From Rhodoluna sp. KAS3 (GTDB taxonomy: Bacteria; Actinomycetota; Actinomycetes; Actinomycetales; Microbacteriaceae): a stretch of 64,000 nucleotides of DNA. The position numbers and the translations under genes were made by a program. The stretch spans positions 1,054,001 to 1,118,000 of the forward strand of contig NZ_AP026910.1 of NCBI RefSeq assembly GCF_026000575.1, in the 5' to 3' direction. The notes under the pieces are model-generated. The model was not told where the DNA came from. It did not search any database and saw nothing but the letters and a program-made list of their open reading frames with translations. Below are positions 42,470 through 49,431 of this stretch, one piece after another (position 1 is the first letter of the stretch; the number at the start of each line of letters is the position of its first letter).

Positions 42470-42554
42470 GGAGAATTCGCCTAGTGGCCTATGGCGCCAG
42501 CTTGGAAAGTTGGTTGGGTGCAAGCCCTCATGGGTTCGAATCCCATATTCTCCG
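42470..42554 (+). tRNA. tRNA-Ser (anticodon GGA)
   Basis: 85-nt class II tRNA. The acceptor stem GGAGAAT pairs with ATTCTCC, the anticodon loop TTGGAAA gives GGA, a long variable arm (GTTGGGTGCAAGCCCTC region) is present and the T loop is TTCGAAT. The discriminator base is G; no CCA is encoded. Its 3' end is the attachment site of the integrated element that follows. Confidence 0.97.
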
Positions 42555-42555
42555 C
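42547..42555 (+). repeat. Probable left attachment core (attL) in tRNA-Ser
   Basis: ATTCTCCGC, acceptor-stem 3' strand, discriminator base and following C of tRNA-Ser. It matches 48560-48568 exactly; extending leftwards, 12 of 14 bases agree. Confidence 0.65.
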
Positions 42556-42562
42556 TCCAATT

Positions 42563-42657
42563 ATTCGGGGGGTCTAAAAGCCCCTCGAATACTGGGTTAA
42601 GACCTTGTAATTACAGGGAAACAAGTCCCAGGGAGTTCTCCCCAGATGCTCCCTGGG
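42563..42657. repeat. Cluster of inverted repeats between tRNA-Ser and integrase
   Basis: Three dyads follow in order: ATTCGGGGGG/CCCCTCGAAT (42563-42590, one G-T), a TGTAATTACA perfect palindrome (42606-42615), and a 9-bp stem CCCAGGGAG/CTCCCTGGG around a 13-base loop (42627-42657). No T-run follows, so they are not ordinary terminators. They could serve as integrase or excisionase sites, or as a strand origin of rolling-circle replication; this is inference. Confidence 0.55.
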
Positions 42658-42662
42658 CACTT

Positions 42663-42688
42663 ATTACTTATTACTTTCCTTATTATTT
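42663..42688 (+). repeat. AT-rich arm-type repeat, left copy
   Basis: 26-bp sequence with core TTTCCTTATTA (42675-42685). It matches 48468-48493 in the same orientation at 24 of 26 positions. It overlaps the region upstream of the integrase -10 (CATACT, 42704-42709), so integrase binding here could also repress its own gene. Confidence 0.6.
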
Positions 42689-42715
42689 CGGCAAAAATTG
42701 CGTCATACTGTACGC

Positions 42716-44119
42716 ATGGTCAGAAGAACATCAGAGGAACTTTGGCAGGCTCGCAGTAAGCCACGCAAGAGGGGCGAAGGCTCTGTCTTTGAGATAACCG
42801 TCAATGGTCAGAGAAAGTTCAGAGCAACACGAACTCTCTACATGAACTCCGATGGAACGGCAGTCCAAGTTTCAGGCACTGGCGACAGCGAACAAGAGGC
42901 AATCCGCAGGCGTGATGAGAACTGGAAAAAGCGATTAGTCCAGATGGGAGAACTTCCCCTCTCCGCATTAGGTGCAAAGCCTAAGGAACTCAAGATGACC
43001 ACCGAGGAGATGTTCTGGGCGTGGCTTGAGTGGAAATCCAGACAGACCGCAAGCGAACGCCGCATCACCCCCATCGTGGTATCTCAGTATGAGGGCGTTA
43101 TCAGACTTCACATCGCTCCGGCCTTTGGCAAAGTTCCTGTCCGCCTGGTTAGCAAAAAGATTGTTGAGGAGTTCCTTTTTGAAACACTCCCTAACAAGCG
43201 AAAGACCATCAAGGATTCAGAGGGTCGCCTTGTAGAGACCGATGAGGAACTAATCGGATTATCAAAGAGACGAGCAACTCAGGGCGTTATCAACATGGCC
43301 TTCAGGTGGGCGTATGAAGAAAAACTAATCAGCGAGAACCCTACTATTGGCGTTCCCAAGATAGACAAGCCAATTAGCCCTGCCAAAGATGAGCACCTGG
43401 AAAAGAAGCTTTGGTATCCCAGTTATCTCGCTGAGAAACTTGAGGGTCAGCAGGACGAGGCTCGTTGGATGCTGATGATTACATGCGGTCTGAGAGCAAG
43501 TGAAAAACTTGGGGCTGAGTGGAGTTGCTTCAGTCGCTTGACTGGTGGAGGACTGGCAACTTTTGAGGTCAGGCAACAGTTAGCGATTGACCCAAAGACA
43601 AAGCGTATCTACATCAAGCCAGACACAAAGACCACCGCAGGCAATCGAATCATTCCTCTTGATAAGCGGATGGTCAAAATCATGAAGAACTACAAAGCCA
43701 TTCAAGACGAGTGGAAGAAACTCCCATCCTGGAACCCACCCAAAGGGCTTGAAGATTTGGTATTCACCACGCCTGAGGGTAAGCCGATACGCCACCAGAC
43801 TGATACGAAACAATGGCGTTCTCTCCTGGCAAGTTTGAAGATGCCGTTTGTGAGACAACACGCAATGCGACACATCGCCATCAGTAGCATGGTCAAACTT
43901 GGGATGCCGATTGAAATCATTAGGTCTATCGCAGGGCATCAAAGCGAGGCCATCACAAGGGCGACCTACACGCACCTCTCACCTTCCGCAAAGATTGAGA
44001 CCATCACCAATTACACAGACCAAGTTTTCAAAACCAGAGACAAGAAGAACGCAGAAAAAGGCGAGTTAGCGAAGCCTAAAAGTAAAGCGTCGGAGCGAAA
44101 GAATACGATTGAAAAATGA
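42716..44119 (+). CDS. int: Tyrosine recombinase (site-specific integrase)
   Basis: 467-residue phage-type integrase for insertion at tRNA-Ser. It has an N-terminal basic arm-binding region (KPRKRGEGSVFE), a SAM-like core-binding domain (about residues 90-190), and a catalytic domain with the Arg in TCGLRASEKLGAEW, HAMRHIAISSM, a GH in RSIAGHQS and the nucleophile in TRATYTHLSP. The expected R-K-H-R-H-Y set is therefore present. ATG 42716 has no ribosome-binding site, but a -10-like CATACT ends 7 bp upstream, suggesting a leaderless transcript. The stop overlaps the methyltransferase start (ATGA), so the two are co-translated. Confidence 0.95.
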   Translation: MVRRTSEELWQARSKPRKRGEGSVFEITVNGQRKFRATRTLYMNSDGTAVQVSGTGDSEQEAIRRRDENWKKRLVQMGELPLSALGAKPKELKMTTEEMFWAWLEWKSRQTASERRITPIVVSQYEGVIRLHIAPAFGKVPVRLVSKKIVEEFLFETLPNKRKTIKDSEGRLVETDEELIGLSKRRATQGVINMAFRWAYEEKLISENPTIGVPKIDKPISPAKDEHLEKKLWYPSYLAEKLEGQQDEARWMLMITCGLRASEKLGAEWSCFSRLTGGGLATFEVRQQLAIDPKTKRIYIKPDTKTTAGNRIIPLDKRMVKIMKNYKAIQDEWKKLPSWNPPKGLEDLVFTTPEGKPIRHQTDTKQWRSLLASLKMPFVRQHAMRHIAISSMVKLGMPIEIIRSIAGHQSEAITRATYTHLSPSAKIETITNYTDQVFKTRDKKNAEKGELAKPKSKASERKNTIEK

Positions 44120-45252
44120 TTGACCAGGAACTCACTCCATCGCCTATTTTTGGCAGCAAACTCTCCCCTTTCGTCAAGTGGCCGGGAGGGAAATCGGGCG
44201 AACTGAAGAAGATTGCCTTAGCAGCTCCTAAAACCGCCAATAGATTCATTGAGCCGTTTCTTGGTGGTGGCTCAGTCCTTCTCTCAATTGACCCAAGCAT
44301 CAAAGCCCTGGGAAACGACATCGTTCCTGAGTTGGTCGCCCTATACAGAGGCAGTTCCACGAACGACAAAGGGCTCTACACAGAACTTTTGCGTTTGGTC
44401 GTTGCCTGGAACAGTTTTAGCAAACATGAGACCCTTTGGTCTGATTTAGCCGTTGCCTTCATCCAGGGAAAAAGCGACATCAGCAAAGCGTTGAAAGCCA
44501 TCCTTGAAATCACAAAGAGCGACCTAAAAGATTTTGACGAACCATTCAAAACAGAGTTTGCGAGACGACTGACCGCAGACCTGCCAAAGAAGATGAACCG
44601 CATCGGCGTTCTTCAGGAAAAGCATGGACGAGACCTTCCTCAGGATGAACTCATGGAGAACATAGAGGGGTTAGTCCGAGCATCGTTCTACATGGCAATT
44701 CGCTCAAGGTATAACAAAGCCAGGAGTGGCGAAATCTTCAACGATGTAAGAACAGCGGATTTCTTCTTCATCCGAGAGTATTGCTACGCCTCTATGTTCC
44801 GTTTCAATGCCTCAGACGAGTTCAATGTTCCTTATGGTGGCGTTTCATACAACCGCAAGGATTTCGCCGTCAAAGTGGAAACACTTTATTCAGAGGCCAT
44901 GCGAGCCAGGCTTTCAAATGCTGAGTTCCACTTGTCTGACTTCACTGAGTTTGTGAAGAAGATTAGTCCTACAAAGGGCGACTTCATGTTCTTAGACCCT
45001 CCATACGACAGCGACTTCACTGACTACGACAACAGGTCTTTTGATAACACTGACCAGGGCCGACTTGCGAAAACGCTGAGCGAACTGGATGCCAACATCA
45101 TGATTGTGATTGGCGATACTCCACTAATTCGCAGCCTCTACCCTGAGACACACTGGAACATCCAAACCGATGCCATGTTCTACAAATGGACAGTCAAGTC
45201 AAGAAACAATCGTGAGGCGAGCCACCTGACGATTACGAACTATGACTTATAG
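44116..45252 (+). CDS. DNA adenine N6-methyltransferase, D12 class
   Basis: 378-residue alpha-class adenine methyltransferase. Motif X FVKWPGGK (19-26), motif I FIEPFLGGGSV (44-54), the D12-typical FRFNASDEFNVPYGG (about 228-242) and motif IV DPPY (294-297) appear in the expected order. It is about 100 residues longer than Dam, most of it in a predicted target-recognition insert at residues 75-215, so GATC specificity should not be assumed. It starts inside the integrase stop (ATGA), and its stop overlaps that of the convergent putative endonuclease. This pairing suggests a type II restriction-modification system. Confidence 0.93.
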   Translation: MIDQELTPSPIFGSKLSPFVKWPGGKSGELKKIALAAPKTANRFIEPFLGGGSVLLSIDPSIKALGNDIVPELVALYRGSSTNDKGLYTELLRLVVAWNSFSKHETLWSDLAVAFIQGKSDISKALKAILEITKSDLKDFDEPFKTEFARRLTADLPKKMNRIGVLQEKHGRDLPQDELMENIEGLVRASFYMAIRSRYNKARSGEIFNDVRTADFFFIREYCYASMFRFNASDEFNVPYGGVSYNRKDFAVKVETLYSEAMRARLSNAEFHLSDFTEFVKKISPTKGDFMFLDPPYDSDFTDYDNRSFDNTDQGRLAKTLSELDANIMIVIGDTPLIRSLYPETHWNIQTDAMFYKWTVKSRNNREASHLTITNYDL

Positions 45253-46041
45253 GTAAGTTTTCTTAACCCTGTTGATGCTGTCGCTGATTAGGTGGGCGTT
45301 CTTGCGATACTCGTCAAGGACGATTTCATAGCCCTTGGGACTGTCTGCAACGAAGTTCCAAAAATCGCTACTGATTAGCAGCTCGTCTTTGGCAAAAAAC
45401 TGAAGAACACGACCCTGTTTCCAAGGATTGCCCTCGCCATAGCGGTTATAGCCAGTTGCGAAATAGATGCGGATGTTTTCGTCAGAGCCAAGTTGATTAG
45501 CCAAGATGCAGTATTGCTCAAGCAGGGCTTCTTTTTCAGAACGGGCTTTCTTGTTGTCCAAGTCGCCACCGAGTTTCAACTCAATAAGTGAGTAATCGCC
45601 CCTGGTCTTGTGCTTGAGGATGTAGTCGCTGTCGTGGCGTTTGCTGTGCTTTTGACCTTCACCCTTCATCGGGAAATCTTGGTAGTGCTCAATGGCCGGC
45701 TTGTGGCTATCAGCGGAGTTCTTATAGCGTTCAAGCAAGGCTCCGATTTTTGCTGTCTGCTCTGCGTAGAGAACACCTTCAACCTGCTGGCTGACTTCAA
45801 AATTGACTTTCGCAATACTGATAGCAATGCTCTCAATGAGATTTCCAAGACTGCTATCAAGCGAACGAGACAAGGCACTAAAAAAGCGGATTTCATCGCC
45901 AAGAGCAGCGACAAAGATGTTATGAACCTTGGAGTTGATTACGCCGTCAGGGTTGTCGTATTCGTCAATGTGTCGCTGTTCAAAACCAGCAGCCCAAGCT
46001 GAGACGGCTGAACTAACAATCAGCCTGATTTTTTCTTCCAT
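45247..46041 (-). CDS. Putative type II restriction endonuclease (PD-(D/E)XK-like)
   Basis: 264 residues; I do not recognise a named family. Counting from an upstream ATG at 46098 (283 residues), D158 in HDSDYIL followed by E173 and K175 in LIELKLGGDLDNKK fits a PD-(D/E)XK nuclease core, with a helical N-terminal half and basic residues near KHSKRH. It converges tail to tail with the D12 methyltransferase, the classic arrangement of restriction-modification genes. ATG 46041 is chosen because AGGGGA lies 6 nt upstream; the ATG at 46098 would overlap the rep stop as ATGA but has a poor site and reads through a dyad. It could be another nuclease-fold defence or DNA-processing protein. Confidence 0.7.
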   Translation of the reverse strand: MEEKIRLIVSSAVSAWAAGFEQRHIDEYDNPDGVINSKVHNIFVAALGDEIRFFSALSRSLDSSLGNLIESIAISIAKVNFEVSQQVEGVLYAEQTAKIGALLERYKNSADSHKPAIEHYQDFPMKGEGQKHSKRHDSDYILKHKTRGDYSLIELKLGGDLDNKKARSEKEALLEQYCILANQLGSDENIRIYFATGYNRYGEGNPWKQGRVLQFFAKDELLISSDFWNFVADSPKGYEIVLDEYRKNAHLISDSINRVKKTYL

Positions 46042-46052
46042 GATTCCCCTAA

Positions 46053-46079
46053 CAACTCCGTTAAAACCTAACGGTGTTG
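46053..46079. promoter_or_regulatory. Imperfect 27-bp dyad upstream of the putative endonuclease gene
   Basis: CAAC-T-CCGTTA (46053-46063) mirrors TAACGG-T-GTTG (46069-46079) around AAACC with one T-T mismatch. It ends 11 bp upstream of the preferred endonuclease start and directly after rep. It lacks a T-run, so an operator or a regulatory RNA stem is likelier than a terminator. Confidence 0.5.
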
Positions 46080-46094
46080 CCTGGGAAATGCGAT

Positions 46095-47480
46095 TCATTC
46101 AGTTTTGTCTCTACGAACCTTGAACGAGAAAATCCGCATGAGAGGAGCGAAAAATCTCTTAACGGTGGCCTTGAACCTGGCACCTAATGAAACTCGTTTT
46201 TCAGGGGTTGCTTGGATTTCCTCAACTTGAGTATCACTTGATGGCTCAGAGTTGCTCTTGTTAGGCATTTGAGGCTCCCTGGAGACAGTTTCACTTGCGT
46301 TCTCAACTGGTGTTCCCTTGTGAGCCTTCAATGCGGCTAAGAGCGTTTCAGCCATTCCATCAGGAACAGAAATGAAACCACCTTGATGCGAAAGTCTTAG
46401 AACTCGGCGGGATGCCATGCGGTAATAAATCACGCCGTCAATCTTTTTAGAGCGTTGAACACGAACCTTTTTGAACTCACGCTTTGCCTTGTGCCATCGC
46501 CTAAGCGTCCTCTGCATGAAAAGAGCATCTTCTTTGCTAACAAGTGCCGTTGCAGTCGCAGGAACTAACCCCCAATAACCCCAGAACCGACCAATGCTCC
46601 CGGCCTCAATCCACAAATCAGGAGCACGATTTTGGTATTCCTTCACCCCACCCTTATTCGCTGATGAGTGCTTGCCAAAGTAATGCGAAATACTATGAGG
46701 CGTTTCTTTGTAGTAATCGGGCCATGCCTTCACTTGAGTTCCTGCCCTTAGATGTTTTTCTCTTTCATTCTCGTCAGGGTGAGCGACTATTTCCGCCCAA
46801 GTTTTTGAAAGCCAAAGTTGGAAATGCCCCAAGTCCATCGTGATGCTGGAAAGGATGTGAGTATGTGGAGCACCTCGTCGTTGAAACTCCAACTTCCAAA
46901 CGCCTATAAGTGGCTTTTTGAACTTTGATTCATAGCGTTTTTTGAGGAGGGCGATGTGCCTCTTGGCTGCTTTGCCGTCAGTGGCAACAGTTTGCCAATC
47001 GCCTGGGTAAGTGAGCGTAATCATTACAGGGATTTGTTTCTCGCTCCCAAATAGTGGCGTGTAATCCAAAGACAGCAATCGCTTGAGCATGTTGGCACGA
47101 GACTTATACGACCACTGAGTTATCACTTGGCGTTCTACATAGTTTGAACGCTTAGCTAAAGGGAAGAGTTTCCTTGAAAAACGAATTGAGGCCGGCGTGA
47201 GCTCAATGTAGTAATCCGTAAGAGTGTCTTGATTACTCCGTTTTTCAACCTGGGGAATTGTGTCGCCTATTTCAGAAAGTCTTTTTTGTGTCGGACTGAT
47301 TACAGGAGGCTTCTTTTTCTTCTTTTTTCTTGGCTTAGCCTTTGCCCTGGGCTTTTTAACCGCAGGCTCTTTTTCCTTCTCCTTTTCTTTTTTGTCCTCT
47401 TTTTGGATGTTTTCACTGCGGACAGTTATGGAAGATATAACAAGCCCTGAGACTTCATCTGTTTGCGGTAATTCACTCAT
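46095..47480 (-). CDS. rep: Rolling-circle replication initiator (HUH superfamily Rep)
   Basis: 461-residue replication protein. After a Lys/Glu-rich low-complexity N terminus (residues 26-60) come motif I VMITLTYPG (152-160), the HUH-type metal motif GAPHTHIL (203-210) with histidines 206 and 208, and motif III SISHYFGKHSSANKG (263-277) with Y267 and K270 as the probable nicking tyrosine and partner lysine. Such Reps nick a double-strand origin and stay covalently bound. The C-terminal third ends in a basic segment. It is the only replication gene here, suggesting that the element replicates as a circle after excision. Confidence 0.88.
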   Translation of the reverse strand: MSELPQTDEVSGLVISSITVRSENIQKEDKKEKEKEKEPAVKKPRAKAKPRKKKKKKPPVISPTQKRLSEIGDTIPQVEKRSNQDTLTDYYIELTPASIRFSRKLFPLAKRSNYVERQVITQWSYKSRANMLKRLLSLDYTPLFGSEKQIPVMITLTYPGDWQTVATDGKAAKRHIALLKKRYESKFKKPLIGVWKLEFQRRGAPHTHILSSITMDLGHFQLWLSKTWAEIVAHPDENEREKHLRAGTQVKAWPDYYKETPHSISHYFGKHSSANKGGVKEYQNRAPDLWIEAGSIGRFWGYWGLVPATATALVSKEDALFMQRTLRRWHKAKREFKKVRVQRSKKIDGVIYYRMASRRVLRLSHQGGFISVPDGMAETLLAALKAHKGTPVENASETVSREPQMPNKSNSEPSSDTQVEEIQATPEKRVSLGARFKATVKRFFAPLMRIFSFKVRRDKTE

Positions 47481-47496
47481 GCCGATACCTATCGGC
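47481..47496 (-). promoter_or_regulatory. Hairpin at the rep translation start
   Basis: On the minus strand GCCGATA-GG-TATCGGC directly precedes the rep ATG. The only purine-rich ribosome-binding stretch (TAGG) lies within the hairpin, so folding would hide it and limit Rep synthesis. It could equally be the Rep nick site, because rolling-circle origins are often hairpins beside rep. Confidence 0.55.
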
Positions 47497-47624
47497 TGAG
47501 GGCAGAAAGACCCCTAAAAGACTGAGGAGATGGCTAACACTTGGTCGCTATCGGCTCGCCTCAAGGACATTCACTTCCGCTACGCAGGTCTCCGCTCCAG
47601 TTCCGCCCTTTTGCTCACCTCTGC

Positions 47625-48053
47625 TCAAGCGTTGTCGCCAGGCTCCACCGCTCCAGGAGGTGTTCTTTTGTCAGACCGCAAAGGTGTCATCCTGGTATCT
47701 CCCGAACCATCAAAATCCAAGACTTCTTCACTCGCAAAAATCCTTCTGTCTATACCAAAGAACCCTTGTCGAATCTCCGCAGAAAATACAGACCATGTTC
47801 CATACCAGCGATGAGGCTTTAGCCACCATTTGCCCTGTTTGAAGAACTTCAAATCGGGAGTTGCCTTGACGGCCTGAATAAAGCCGTCAAGGTCTTGCTC
47901 CGAAACGGCAGAGACAAAGATGTAGTCCTCGCCCCCACCCATCTTGAAATAACTGAGTGGTGGCACTGGGTCTGTTATTGGTGTCCAGTAATCAGCCCAG
48001 ATGTTCCAGACTGTGCCTGCAACATAGAACTCCTTTGCCTCTGCCTTTCTCAT
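47625..48053 (-). CDS. Hypothetical element protein
   Basis: 142 residues, no family recognised. It is rich in aromatic residues (VWNIWADYW, KWWLKPHRWYGTW), acidic in the C-terminal half, with no signal peptide or membrane helix. It overlaps the upstream gene by one base and lies upstream of rep on the same strand, so the three may form one transcript. The 145-bp gap before rep contains only the rep hairpin and no other gene that I can support. Confidence 0.72.
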   Translation of the reverse strand: MRKAEAKEFYVAGTVWNIWADYWTPITDPVPPLSYFKMGGGEDYIFVSAVSEQDLDGFIQAVKATPDLKFFKQGKWWLKPHRWYGTWSVFSAEIRQGFFGIDRRIFASEEVLDFDGSGDTRMTPLRSDKRTPPGAVEPGDNA

Positions 48054-48412
48054 TACTGCTGAGCCTTCAAGACTTCAACGCCAGAGATTTGAAAAGACCA
48101 AGAGGTCTTATCGGTCTGAAGCGGAGACCACTTTCCACCAGCGAGACCAATCAAGCGGATTGCGGTTAGTTCCTCAATCTGCTTTATCTTGTTGGCGATT
48201 TCTGCAGGAGTTGTGAGAGTGAAACTTTCCATTTCCTGCACTCCGCCAGGAACTTTCACCAATGCTGAGACTGTCCATACTGGAACGCCGTTTTTGTCCG
48301 TCTTGTGTTTTTCATCAACACCAAAACCTTCTGTCTTTGGACTGATTGCGATAAATCGCACAGTCTCAAAAGTGTTTGGGTGCAGCTGCAAGTAATAGCC
48401 GTAATTTGCCAT
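48053..48412 (-). CDS. Hypothetical element protein, possibly single-strand DNA binding
   Basis: 119 residues. Alternating hydrophobic strands (VWTVSALVKVP, MESFTLTTP, TAIRLIGLAGG, SWSFQISGVEVL) suggest a small all-beta protein, and genes of this size and place beside rolling-circle rep genes often encode ssDNA-binding proteins. That assignment is an inference from size, strand pattern and position only. The start ATG 48412 has TAAGGAAACAAC upstream, the best ribosome-binding site in the element, so it is probably well expressed. Confidence 0.75.
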   Translation of the reverse strand: MANYGYYLQLHPNTFETVRFIAISPKTEGFGVDEKHKTDKNGVPVWTVSALVKVPGGVQEMESFTLTTPAEIANKIKQIEELTAIRLIGLAGGKWSPLQTDKTSWSFQISGVEVLKAQQ

Positions 48413-48567
48413 GTTGTTTCCTTATTATTGAGGAGAGCCGGGTGCCCTCAACAGTAGTTATCGGCAGATTACTTATTATTTTCCTTATTACTTAATGCAG
48501 ACGGCTACCCTTAAAAGCAAGTAAATAAAGGGCAAAAGGGTTAATGGGTGGAGACCCCCATTCTCCG
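48413..48567. other. Non-coding right end of the element
   Basis: No gene is seen. It holds a TTTCCTTATTA copy (48417-48427, which also carries the ribosome-binding site of the gene to its left), the 26-bp arm-type repeat at 48468-48493, a short GC-rich inverted repeat near TGAGG...CCTCA (48429-48450), and the right attachment core. Confidence 0.7.
48468..48493 (+). repeat. AT-rich arm-type repeat, right copy
   Basis: Matches 42663-42688 at 24 of 26 bases, direct orientation, 67 bp inside the right attachment core. Placement near both ends fits integrase arm-binding sites. Confidence 0.6.
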
Positions 48568-48568
48568 C
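48560..48568 (+). repeat. Probable right attachment core (attR)
   Basis: ATTCTCCGC, identical to the 3' end of tRNA-Ser. It is preceded by GGAGACCCCC, which can mimic the acceptor stem, and is followed 7 bp later by the terminator at 48576. Confidence 0.6.
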
Positions 48569-48575
48569 AGTGAAA

Positions 48576-48605
48576 AAGCCTCCAGAGTAATCTGGGGGCT
48601 TTTGT
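48576..48605. terminator. Intrinsic terminator, probably the displaced terminator of tRNA-Ser
   Basis: AAGCCTCCAGA (48576-48586) pairs with TCTGGGGGCTT (48591-48601) with one T-G, followed by T-rich sequence. It begins 7 bp after the right attachment core, where the tRNA terminator would stand if the element were removed. Confidence 0.85.
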
Positions 48606-48642
48606 CATTCGGCAATAGTTCGAAATCTATAGGCTTGGTTGA

Positions 48643-49308
48643 ATGGAACAACTGACTAGATTTCTACTTATTCTTCATGTGGCTGCAGGGTCACTTGCAT
48701 TACTTGCCACGATCTTCGCCATTTCATTTCGCAAAGGTGCGAGGAAGCATAACTTTGCTGGCAAAACTTACTTTTGGTCGATGATGGCCGTTGCCGCAAC
48801 AGCCATACCTGTATCGATTCTTCGCCCAAATATCATGTTGTTCTTTGTTGCCCTATTTTCTTCATACATGGCCTACGCCGGGTGGCGGTTCGGGCGCAAA
48901 TCGCACTACATCTTGAAGCGCAAGCCTTACGTCGAATGGGGAATGCTCCTCGTTGGATTAGCGATGATTATCAGCGGGCTCCTAGAAGTATTCGCTGGAG
49001 GATCGATGGGTTGGGTTCTAGTTGCGTTTGGGGCTATAGGGCTTCAGTTCGCGGTCCAGGATTTACGAGGATGGGGAAAAGCGGAAGACTTCGGAACCAG
49101 AATCTCCAATCACCTCGCCCACATGCTCGGGGGAACAATCGCAACGGTCACGGCCGTGCTGGTTCAACAAGTTGTTCCGAGGCTTGATCCTTCCAGCGCA
49201 TTCAAGGTTATTGTCTGGTTAGCCCCAACTGTCATCATCACACCGCTGATCATCATCTGGGCAAGGAAAGTAAAGGCAACTCAAAAGGTTCGTTTGTTCC
49301 AAAAGTGA
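48643..49308 (+). CDS. DUF2306-family membrane protein
   Basis: 221 residues, about six membrane helices. The first helices carry LHVAAGSLALL and KGARKHNFAGKTYFWSMM, typical of the DUF2306 family; a conserved histidine NHLAHMLGG lies in the second half. Function unknown. It lies just outside the element's right end and ends upstream of a stretch with a short tandem repeat. Confidence 0.8.
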   Translation: MEQLTRFLLILHVAAGSLALLATIFAISFRKGARKHNFAGKTYFWSMMAVAATAIPVSILRPNIMLFFVALFSSYMAYAGWRFGRKSHYILKRKPYVEWGMLLVGLAMIISGLLEVFAGGSMGWVLVAFGAIGLQFAVQDLRGWGKAEDFGTRISNHLAHMLGGTIATVTAVLVQQVVPRLDPSSAFKVIVWLAPTVIITPLIIIWARKVKATQKVRLFQK

Positions 49309-49431
49309 ATGCCGCGTTAGTCAACTTGGCGTAGAAAGATGGCGTAGAAAGCGATTTGGTACACCCTAGCCCCAGGATTTACGCGGGCAAGAGGGCGTTA
49401 GTGCGTATCAAGCATTCTCCGCGCAAATGAG
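49309..49431. other. Non-coding stretch with short tandem repeat and a third attachment-like core
   Basis: No gene. It contains two tandem copies of GGCGTAGAAAG (49328-49338 and 49341-49351), and CATTCTCCGC at 49413-49422, identical to the 10 bases ending at the right attachment core (48559-48568). These may be remnants of an older insertion. Confidence 0.55.
49330..49353 (+). repeat. Degenerate direct repeat, left copy
   Basis: The 24 bases here resemble 49794-49816 (CGCAGAAAGACGGCGTTGAAGCG) at about 20 positions with one gap. The two copies flank the 63-residue membrane protein gene. Confidence 0.45.

What the first reader, a model, noticed from the sequence alone, without database searches (positions are those of the whole stretch)
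42547..48568. Compact integrating rolling-circle element carrying a probable type II restriction-modification pair
Seen: in about 6 kb, a tyrosine integrase next to tRNA-Ser, an HUH Rep with recognisable motifs I-III, a D12 adenine methyltransferase, a convergent putative PD-(D/E)XK protein, and two unknown small proteins; repeats at both ends. Established: HUH Reps and tyrosine integrases coexist in some actinobacterial integrative plasmids, but those usually bring transfer functions. Inference: this is a minimal element with no transfer genes, maintained by restriction-modification addiction. The particular combination may be undescribed.
Basis: partly seen in the sequence, partly recalled or inferred. 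Interest (0 to 1): 0.78.

Follow-up and report, generated by a model that had tools for sequence, protein, structure and literature searches.

The report
Restriction-carrying, restriction-dodging mini integrative element
A 6-kb mobile DNA element sits in a tRNA gene of a small-genome actinobacterium, carries its own DNA-cutting defence system, and has lost about 70% of the short palindromes that such systems cut; relatives in three other genomes carry other cutting systems in the same part of the element.

Summary
Window 42547-48568 is a 6.0-kb integrated element: tRNA-Ser(GGA), tyrosine integrase, Dam-family D12 methylase, convergent TdeIII-family REase, HUH Rep, two small proteins, no recognised transfer gene. 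G028 has the identical tRNA-Ser without the element. Its Rep groups with three others (99/98); each of the four elements has integrase, 119-aa and 142-aa-like genes, Rep, end repeats of 9-20 nt, and an MTase with a recognised or putative REase of a different kind (TdeIII+D12; REase_II+N6/N4-MTase; NotI-like+C5; HNH+C5+Vsr). Not noticed before: the element is purged of 4-bp palindromes (79 against 258 in codon-preserving shuffles, z -14; 15.6/kb against 57/kb in the host), and so is its same-genus sister (97 against 248); the other two are weakly or selectively depleted. Host blocks, related plasmids and Zot-bearing loci are near 1 (0.83-1.11); five T7 genes 0.76. The purge covers every gene, R-M genes included. 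Best reading: a transfer-less integrative rolling-circle plasmid carrying R-M as swappable cargo, whose DNA repeatedly meets foreign type II enzymes. How it moves, whether Rep and R-M are active, and whether R-M acts as addiction are untested.

The parts
42470..42555 (+). tRNA-Ser(GGA), insertion site; its 3' end supplies the left copy of the repeat
   Evidence: ARAGORN; identical tRNA in a site without the element in G028
42547..42555 (+). left att core ATTCTCCGC
42659..42685 (+). arm-type repeats ACTTATTA / TTTCCTTATTA, left side
   Evidence: function inferred
42698..44119 (+). tyrosine integrase (in-frame ATG at 42716)
   Evidence: PF00589 1.4e-14; 35-37% identical to the integrases of the three sister elements
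44116..45252 (+). D12/Dam-family adenine methyltransferase; start overlaps the integrase stop (ATGA)
   Evidence: PF02086 1.6e-33; TIGR00571 above cutoff; DPPY motif seen in the sequence; closest solved relative DpnII methylase 2dpm, 2.6e-24
45247..46098 (-). type II REase of the TdeIII family, convergent with the MTase; start overlaps the Rep stop (ATGA)
   Evidence: PF09520 2.9e-32; 53% identical to a plasmid-borne TdeIII-family REase
46095..47480 (-). HUH replication initiator
   Evidence: PF23343 5e-8; LTYP, HxH and YFxKH invariant in 4 of 4 element Reps (motif labels recalled); group support 99/98
47625..48053 (-). 142-aa protein, unknown; conserved neighbour of Rep
   Evidence: 22-47% identical to its counterparts in 3 sister elements; low-confidence model, no convincing fold match
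48053..48412 (-). 119-aa protein, probable OB fold, distant SCO3933/Pra resemblance
   Evidence: 55-71% identical in 3 sister elements; model pLDDT 74; best PDB matches are SSBs, E 3e-3, none under 0.001; SCO3933_fam E 0.005, below cutoff
48417..48490 (+). arm-type repeats TTTCCTTATTA (48417, 48480), right side
   Evidence: function inferred
48560..48568 (+). right att core ATTCTCCGC; chromosomal homology to G006 resumes here

Best explanation
A small integrative plasmid-like element without transfer genes. The integrase recombines attP with the 3' end of tRNA-Ser(GGA), keeping the tRNA whole (site, arm-type repeats and a site without the element shown; recombination inferred). The excised circle is copied by the HUH Rep by rolling circle, with the 119-aa OB-fold-like protein handling ssDNA or regulating rep and int, as Pra does in pSAM2 (inferred). 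Type II R-M is swappable cargo: the MTase start overlaps the int stop and the REase start the rep stop (shown), so methylation may begin with integrase expression while the REase comes last in the rep operon (inferred). The R-M defends the cell against phages and rival elements and may punish loss of the element (inferred). The element reaches new cells with outside help, and on the way its unmodified DNA meets many foreign type II enzymes, which has removed most 4-bp palindromes (depletion shown; cause inferred).
For: Gene families; att and arm repeats; G028 without the element. Same core with different R-M and end repeats in 3 more genomes: G016 tmRNA (by eye) 17 nt, G582 tRNA-Ala 20 nt, G706 tRNA-Ser 14 nt; one Rep group, 99/98. 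The pair recurs on plasmid pA3H9. Palindromes: 79 against 257.8, z -13.9, and G016 97 against 247.9, z -11.8; 6-bp 10 against 60.7 and 20 against 59.0; 11 of the 16 most depleted 4-mers are palindromes in both; every gene depleted. Below all 200 shuffles when codon-boundary context is also kept. Controls near 1.
Against: No test of excision, replication or restriction. The window's exact att repeat is only 9 nt. The purge is strong in 2 of 4 elements only: G706 373/432 with GGCC 0/33; G582 299/328. With the stricter shuffle the expectation falls to 117 and z to -6.2. A fifth carrier of the 119-aa gene, G1167, lacks both HUH Rep and R-M. IMG/VR contigs with a 47% Rep, an integrase and a weak 119-aa hit nearby show no recognised R-M and no purge (ratio 1.02). 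One of 8 host blocks is itself depleted (z -4.6, ratio 0.83). The REase of G706 is only putative (HNH; PADLOC REase_II 3.3e-4). MTase and REase are not in one operon, unlike many R-M sets (recalled).
Confidence: 0.8

Rival explanations
1. Phage satellite or other phage-carried element: the 6-kb circle or a concatemer is packed by a helper phage and injected as dsDNA, like the Vibrio PICMIs.
For: PICMI115 is 6110 bp; PICMIs encode excision and replication functions, lack capsid-remodelling genes, and some carry type I or II R-M (PMC10803314, passages). Palindrome purge is a phage-like signature. No transfer genes in the element; in its own genome the tyrosine-recombinase matches are this integrase and two frames of 305 and 338 aa.
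Against: No primase of the PICMI kind recognised among the six genes; no packaging signal or helper identified. Rep has no match in the phage collection, nor has the G582 119-aa protein, and the 119-aa alignment none in viral contigs. The integrase matches 654 phage and satellite records, all under 60% identity, 22-27% in the 40 rows listed, which is uninformative. Of two phages tested, one (Seahorse) shows no purge (0.95) and T7 0.76, far milder than here.
Confidence: 0.3
2. Conjugative hitchhiker: a cut-down relative of actinobacterial AICEs and small plasmids, mobilised by a TraB/FtsK or relaxase system in another element.
For: Among the nearest Reps outside the group are those of small actinobacterial plasmids (pCAZ1 46%; an IMG/VR contig has 47%); 5 of the 10 plasmids read have an annotated FtsK-type gene. 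The 119-aa protein weakly resembles SCO3933, a Pra homologue of an AICE remnant (PMC8584621, passages). The own genome has, besides an 885-aa FtsK frame, a second FtsK_SpoIIIE match above cutoff in a 338-aa frame (2.0e-13), not examined.
Against: The related plasmids show no 4-bp purge (8 tested, ratio 0.90-1.11). SCO3933 match is below cutoff; profile comparison with a plasmid protein annotated as a replication, integration and excision activator failed.
Confidence: 0.3
3. Satellite of a filamentous (inovirus-like) phage, packaged as ssDNA by a helper.
For: Relatives of the Rep lie beside Zot-like genes, recognised by eye, in several loci; ssDNA-binding-like 119-aa protein.
Against: Zot (PF05707): 1 of 67 genus genomes, marginal (7.2e-4), none in the own genome. 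Three Zot-bearing loci show little purge (0.88-1.05), and ssDNA virions would not explain it. The Rep tree groups the Zot-bearing loci apart (90/81), though its backbone is weak.
Confidence: 0.07
4. Fixed, decaying remnant: the element was once mobile and is now an immobile R-M locus.
For: Only 9-nt exact att repeat; single copy of Rep and of this integrase in the genome.
Against: All six frames are open; palindrome depletion is still present in every gene, although it would erode without selection.
Confidence: 0.15

Closest known systems
Actinomycete integrative and conjugative elements (pSAM2, SLP1, SCO3937 remnant; partly recalled, PMC8584621 passages)
   Same: integrase, usually at tRNA genes, Rep, possible Pra-like regulator
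   Different: no Tra/FtsK, no KorSA, no Xis recognised; carries type II R-M; palindrome purge
PICMIs (Vibrio phage-inducible chromosomal minimalist islands; PMC10803314, passages)
   Same: about 6 kb, integration + replication + defence cargo, R-M in some, no capsid genes
   Different: different genes, host phylum and replication protein; helper phage unknown here
Integrative mobilizable elements with RCR-type relaxases (PMC5704250, passages)
   Same: integrase + RCR-initiator-like protein, sometimes type II R-M, no mating machinery
   Different: Rep family and hosts differ; relaxase activity unknown; an R-M set in 4 of 4 members
Cryptic integrated elements of Thaumarchaeota (PMC6563490, passages)
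   Same: integrase-bearing elements with diverse replication proteins and R-M genes
   Different: archaeal, other genes; as far as the passages show, no clade with an R-M set in a fixed slot
Psychrobacter plasmid pA3H9 (NZ_MN657089.1)
   Same: homologous TdeIII REase + adenine methylase pair, adjacent
   Different: plasmid with MobA/MobL and RepM, tandem gene order, no palindrome purge (0.96)

Membership tests
Type II restriction-modification system | REase and MTase of recognised families encoded together | tested here: met
   PF09520 112.7 bits (cutoff 27.2) and PF02086 116.9 bits (cutoff 22); pair recurs on pA3H9
Type II restriction-modification system | both enzymes act on the same site | not testable with these tools
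   specificity unknown; GGNCC for TdeIII is recalled and could not be protected by an adenine methylase
tRNA-targeted integrative element | integrase beside a tRNA, flanking direct repeat, relative with the site unoccupied | tested here: met
   the repeat is short (9 nt)
AICE | TraB/FtsK-type transfer gene | tested here: not met
   no such family among the six ORFs
AICE | Pra-type activator | tested here: inconclusive
   SCO3933_fam matches 2 of 4 members, best 4e-4, below cutoff; hhalign to a plasmid protein annotated as such an activator negative
Rolling-circle (HUH) replicon | HUH initiator with catalytic Tyr | tested here: met
   PF23343 above cutoff; HxH and YFxKH invariant in 4 of 4 (catalytic roles recalled)
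Rolling-circle (HUH) replicon | double-strand origin and circular form | not tested
   no origin assigned; no reads available
IME | relaxase or oriT used by a helper conjugation system | not testable with these tools
   only the Rep could serve; needs mating tests
PICMI / phage satellite | hallmark genes and packaging by a helper phage | tested here: inconclusive
   no hallmark gene recognised among six ORFs; packaging not testable

The most novel reading that the evidence does not exclude
These are members of a family of minimal 'restriction-war' elements: hitchhikers that travel as unmodified dsDNA (in borrowed phage particles or by uptake), each armed with a different R-M set that excludes rival elements and phages, and each purged of the sites cut by its rivals. 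In the streamlined genus of the window even an unrelated 10-kb island with a type I R-M set (G007) shows the purge, so mobile elements, not host genomes, would be both the main source and the main target of restriction there.
Probability: 0.3. Interest if true: 0.85.

Novelty: new variant of a known kind. Interest (0 to 1): 0.72.

Why it matters
Complete R-M sets are reported to be relatively few in plasmids and prophages and practically absent from phages (PMC4176335, passages), and 4-bp palindromes to be no more avoided in plasmid genes than in core genes (PMC10359461, passages). Here a group of 5.7-6.8-kb elements carries an R-M set in 4 of 4 members, and two of them avoid 4-bp palindromes far more than the five T7 genes tested. 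This gives small, tractable elements to ask whether R-M is carried for defence, for exclusion of rivals or for addiction. It also offers a sequence-only signature (palindrome density with sharp edges) for finding and delimiting hidden mobile elements.

Tried and rejected
Searches that led nowhere: Rep in genome contigs with single-sequence patterns (none) and in viral contigs (none; the four-row alignment found 9 loci); Rep and the G582 119-aa protein in phages (none); the 119-aa proteins of window and G582 in plasmids (none); solved structures for the Rep profile, the window REase and the G016 REase (none); profile comparison of the 119- and 142-aa proteins with plasmid proteins (nothing significant); fold of the 142-aa protein (no convincing match). 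TdeIII family: 1 of 396 order genomes, the window's own.

Considered and rejected: that the short att repeat is chance (arm repeats, homology edge in G006, unoccupied site in G028 and palindrome edge agree). That depletion reflects base or codon composition: codon-preserving shuffles and non-palindromic 4-mers (mean z +0.17 against -3.43 for palindromes in the window element) argue against it. That rolling-circle life alone causes it: 8 related plasmids are not depleted. Own recognition site from the palindrome table: not resolved; the window element lacks GATC (0/24.5), GCGC, CGCG, CTAG, GTAC and ACGT and keeps CATG (20/13.7), which fits either self-avoidance or rivals' sites.

Rows dropped before counts: of the 8 of 398 family genomes that match the Rep profile, G505, G469, G506 and G577 were not counted as members because no int or 119-aa homologue appeared in the fetched stretch (G469 has one 38-residue hit to the 142-aa protein, E 0.005). 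The five further order genomes (G192, G253, G418, G449, G459) gave Rep hits only, plus one 33-residue hit in G449, E 0.005 (G418 only in a 3.6-kb stretch). One search also lists three marginal 119-aa matches (G861, G909, G1105; 2e-4 to 7e-4), not examined. IMG/VR loci L060-L062 (near-copies of one region) have a 47% Rep, an integrase and weak 119-aa and 129-aa hits within 18 kb, but no recognised R-M and no purge; not counted as members. Palindrome controls used 8 of the 11 plasmids found; annotation was read for 10 of 11. Palindrome sets use annotated or chosen ORFs; for G706 the MTase was counted from residue 173 on, where its methylase domain begins, and the overlapping 129-aa frame is in the set but not in that.

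Full report
Observation. The window lies in a single-contig genome of 1.34 Mb (G000). Between tRNA-Ser(GGA) at 42470-42555 and 48568 lie six genes: integrase (+), D12 methylase (+), TdeIII-family REase (-), HUH Rep (-), 142 aa (-), 119 aa (-). The methylase start overlaps the integrase stop and the REase start overlaps the Rep stop, both as ATGA; methylase and REase meet tail to tail. No transfer gene, relaxase, capsid or Zot family was recognised among the six (for five of them).

Limits. The exact att repeat is only 9 nt, and a further copy lies at 49414, so it is weak by itself. Four other lines fix the limits: the motif TTTCCTTATTA occurs only at 42675, 48417 and 48480 in 64 kb; homology to G006 on the right resumes at 48560; G028 carries the identical tRNA-Ser 138 bp before the right-hand DUF2306-like gene, with no element; palindrome density changes at the same edges.

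Relatives. The Rep is found in 2 of 67 genomes of the genus, 8 of 398 of the family and 6 of 396 of the order, the window's genome being counted in each. Four Reps (window, G016, G582, G706) form one group with support 99/98 among 21 Reps. These four genomes also share the 119-aa gene (55-71% identical to the window's), the 142-aa-like gene (22-47%) and the integrase (32-37% pairwise). A scan of 84,980 species genomes with the 119-aa alignment returned the same three relatives, all MAGs; its patterns are strict and it missed G1167. Sites and repeats: G016 tmRNA, 17 nt, 5.67 kb; G582 tRNA-Ala, 20 nt, 5.68 kb; G706 tRNA-Ser(GGA), 14 nt, 6.78 kb. The tmRNA in G016 is cut by the contig end and was recognised by eye; ARAGORN found nothing there. 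In G016 the motif TTTTAAGCAAC lies twice at each end.

R-M cargo. Window: TdeIII REase + D12 MTase. G016: REase_II (PADLOC 3.2e-18; no Pfam match) + N6_N4 MTase (9.7e-38). G582: NotI-family REase (7.7e-10) + C5 MTase (1.9e-63). G706: HNH protein (1.8e-9; PADLOC REase_II only 3.3e-4, so a putative REase) + C5 MTase (6.3e-62) + Vsr (5.9e-20). All-against-all BLASTP relates only the two C5 MTases (39%), apart from one 13-residue hit at E about 0.05. So 4 of 4 members carry an R-M set beside rep, of four kinds. A fifth 119-aa carrier, G1167 (another family, tRNA-Ser(GCT)), has 119-aa and 101-aa genes, a 226-aa protein that looks like an HTH replication protein by eye, and an integrase, but no HUH Rep and no R-M; in its family only G1167 itself, 1 of 101, has the gene. 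IMG/VR loci L060-L062 carry a 47% Rep, an integrase and a weak 119-aa hit within 18 kb, without recognised R-M. Of 11 plasmids with related Reps, 10 were read: none has an annotated R-M or integrase gene, though that gene table is incomplete. The window's pair recurs side by side on Psychrobacter plasmid pA3H9.

Palindrome purge. In shuffles that keep protein and codon usage of each gene (500, 300), the window element has 79 4-bp palindromes where 258 are expected (z about -14) and 10 6-bp palindromes against 60.7; G016 97 against 248 and 20 against 59. Six palindromes are absent from the window's coding set (ACGT, CGCG, CTAG, GATC, GCGC, GTAC; about 80 expected). All six genes of each element are depleted, R-M genes included (z -2.1 to -7.8), which suggests that the R-M genes have shared the element's life for long. 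With a stricter shuffle that also keeps codon-boundary neighbours, expectation drops to 117 and 126, and the observed values still lie below all 200 shuffles (z -6.2, -5.1). Weaker cases: G706 373/432 with GGCC 0/33, TGCA 0/8.6, CTAG 0/6.6 and 6-bp 39/103.5; G582 299/328; G1167 101/130. Controls: 8 host blocks of the window 0.83-1.01 (one with z -4.6); 8 related plasmids 0.90-1.11; pA3H9 0.96; 3 Zot-bearing loci 0.88-1.05; flanking genes of the four other genomes 0.93-1.04; L060 1.02; Arthrobacter phage Seahorse 0.95; five T7 genes 0.76. By a Markov measure, on which the window element scores 0.31 and G016 0.40, nine of ten further integrase-bearing stretches of the genus range from 0.73 to 1.12; the tenth (G007, L111) has a block at 0.55-0.72. 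That block is a 10-kb island at tRNA-Arg with integrase, type I R-M (HsdR, S, M), an Mrr-type nuclease and one unknown protein: 288 against 485 palindromes, z -11.1, five palindromes absent.

Reading. The purge is specific to palindromes, stops at the element's edges and is absent from related plasmids. Restriction by many type II enzymes met as unmodified double-stranded DNA is the explanation I know for such a pattern (avoidance in phages is established, PMC10359461 passages; inference here). That speaks for an element under horizontal selection, and somewhat more for a phage-carried or uptake route than for the conjugative plasmids its Rep resembles; the route is not shown. The 119-aa protein has an OB-like predicted fold (pLDDT 74) with SSBs as best matches (best E 3.3e-3, TM 0.30-0.46) and a sub-threshold match to SCO3933, a Pra homologue (PMC8584621, passages). 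I take it as an ssDNA-binding or regulatory partner of Rep (inference).

Literature. Six searches of the open PMC library listed no paper whose title or abstract start describes this family; three of these lists were cut (15 of 18, 10 of 252, 8 of 397) and held no paper. IMEs, CIEs and PICMIs with R-M are known (passages). Most subscription papers are not in that library.

Verdict. The elements are of a known general kind (small integrative hitchhikers with defence cargo) but a new variant: one group, four R-M kinds, and in two members an extreme 4-bp palindrome purge.

Noticed in passing
L111 1-10300 (G007:C2:42000-52300): 10-kb island at tRNA-Arg in the same genus with integrase, type I R-M, Mrr-type nuclease and strong palindrome purge (288 against 485).
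   Followed up: partly
window 48546-49430: The DUF2306-like gene right of the element is followed by another ATTCTCCGC copy (49414) and a tandem TGGCGTAGAAAGATGGCGTAGAAAG; similar copies lie beside the same gene in G006 and G028, like scars of older insertions at this tRNA.
   Followed up: partly
L049 (G006:C1:289300-292500): A 23-nt tRNA-Ser 3'-end fragment stands alone beside the same gene; ARAGORN found no tRNA in the adjoining 15 kb (L086), suggesting another, larger insertion.
   Followed up: no
L081 7913-11725 (G1167:C21): A 3.7-kb element with only the 119-aa and 142-like genes, an HTH-type protein and an integrase at tRNA-Ser(GCT).
   Followed up: partly
L052 5867-6310 (G706): A Vsr mismatch endonuclease sits between integrase and the 119-aa gene, apart from the C5 MTase it presumably serves.
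   Followed up: no
L067, L068, L083, L084: Relatives of this Rep lie beside Zot-like (by eye) and large secreted-looking proteins, probable filamentous phages of actinobacteria.
   Followed up: no
L060 8362-17813 (IMG/VR): Rep 47% identical to the window's, an integrase and weak 119-aa and 129-aa hits within 10 kb, with a 312-aa protein weakly like a PD-(D/E)XK domain (PADLOC 2.2e-5): a looser relative without recognised R-M.
   Followed up: partly
G000:C1:384532-384891: A second FtsK_SpoIIIE match above cutoff (2.0e-13, 338-aa frame) besides the 885-aa FtsK frame.
   Followed up: no
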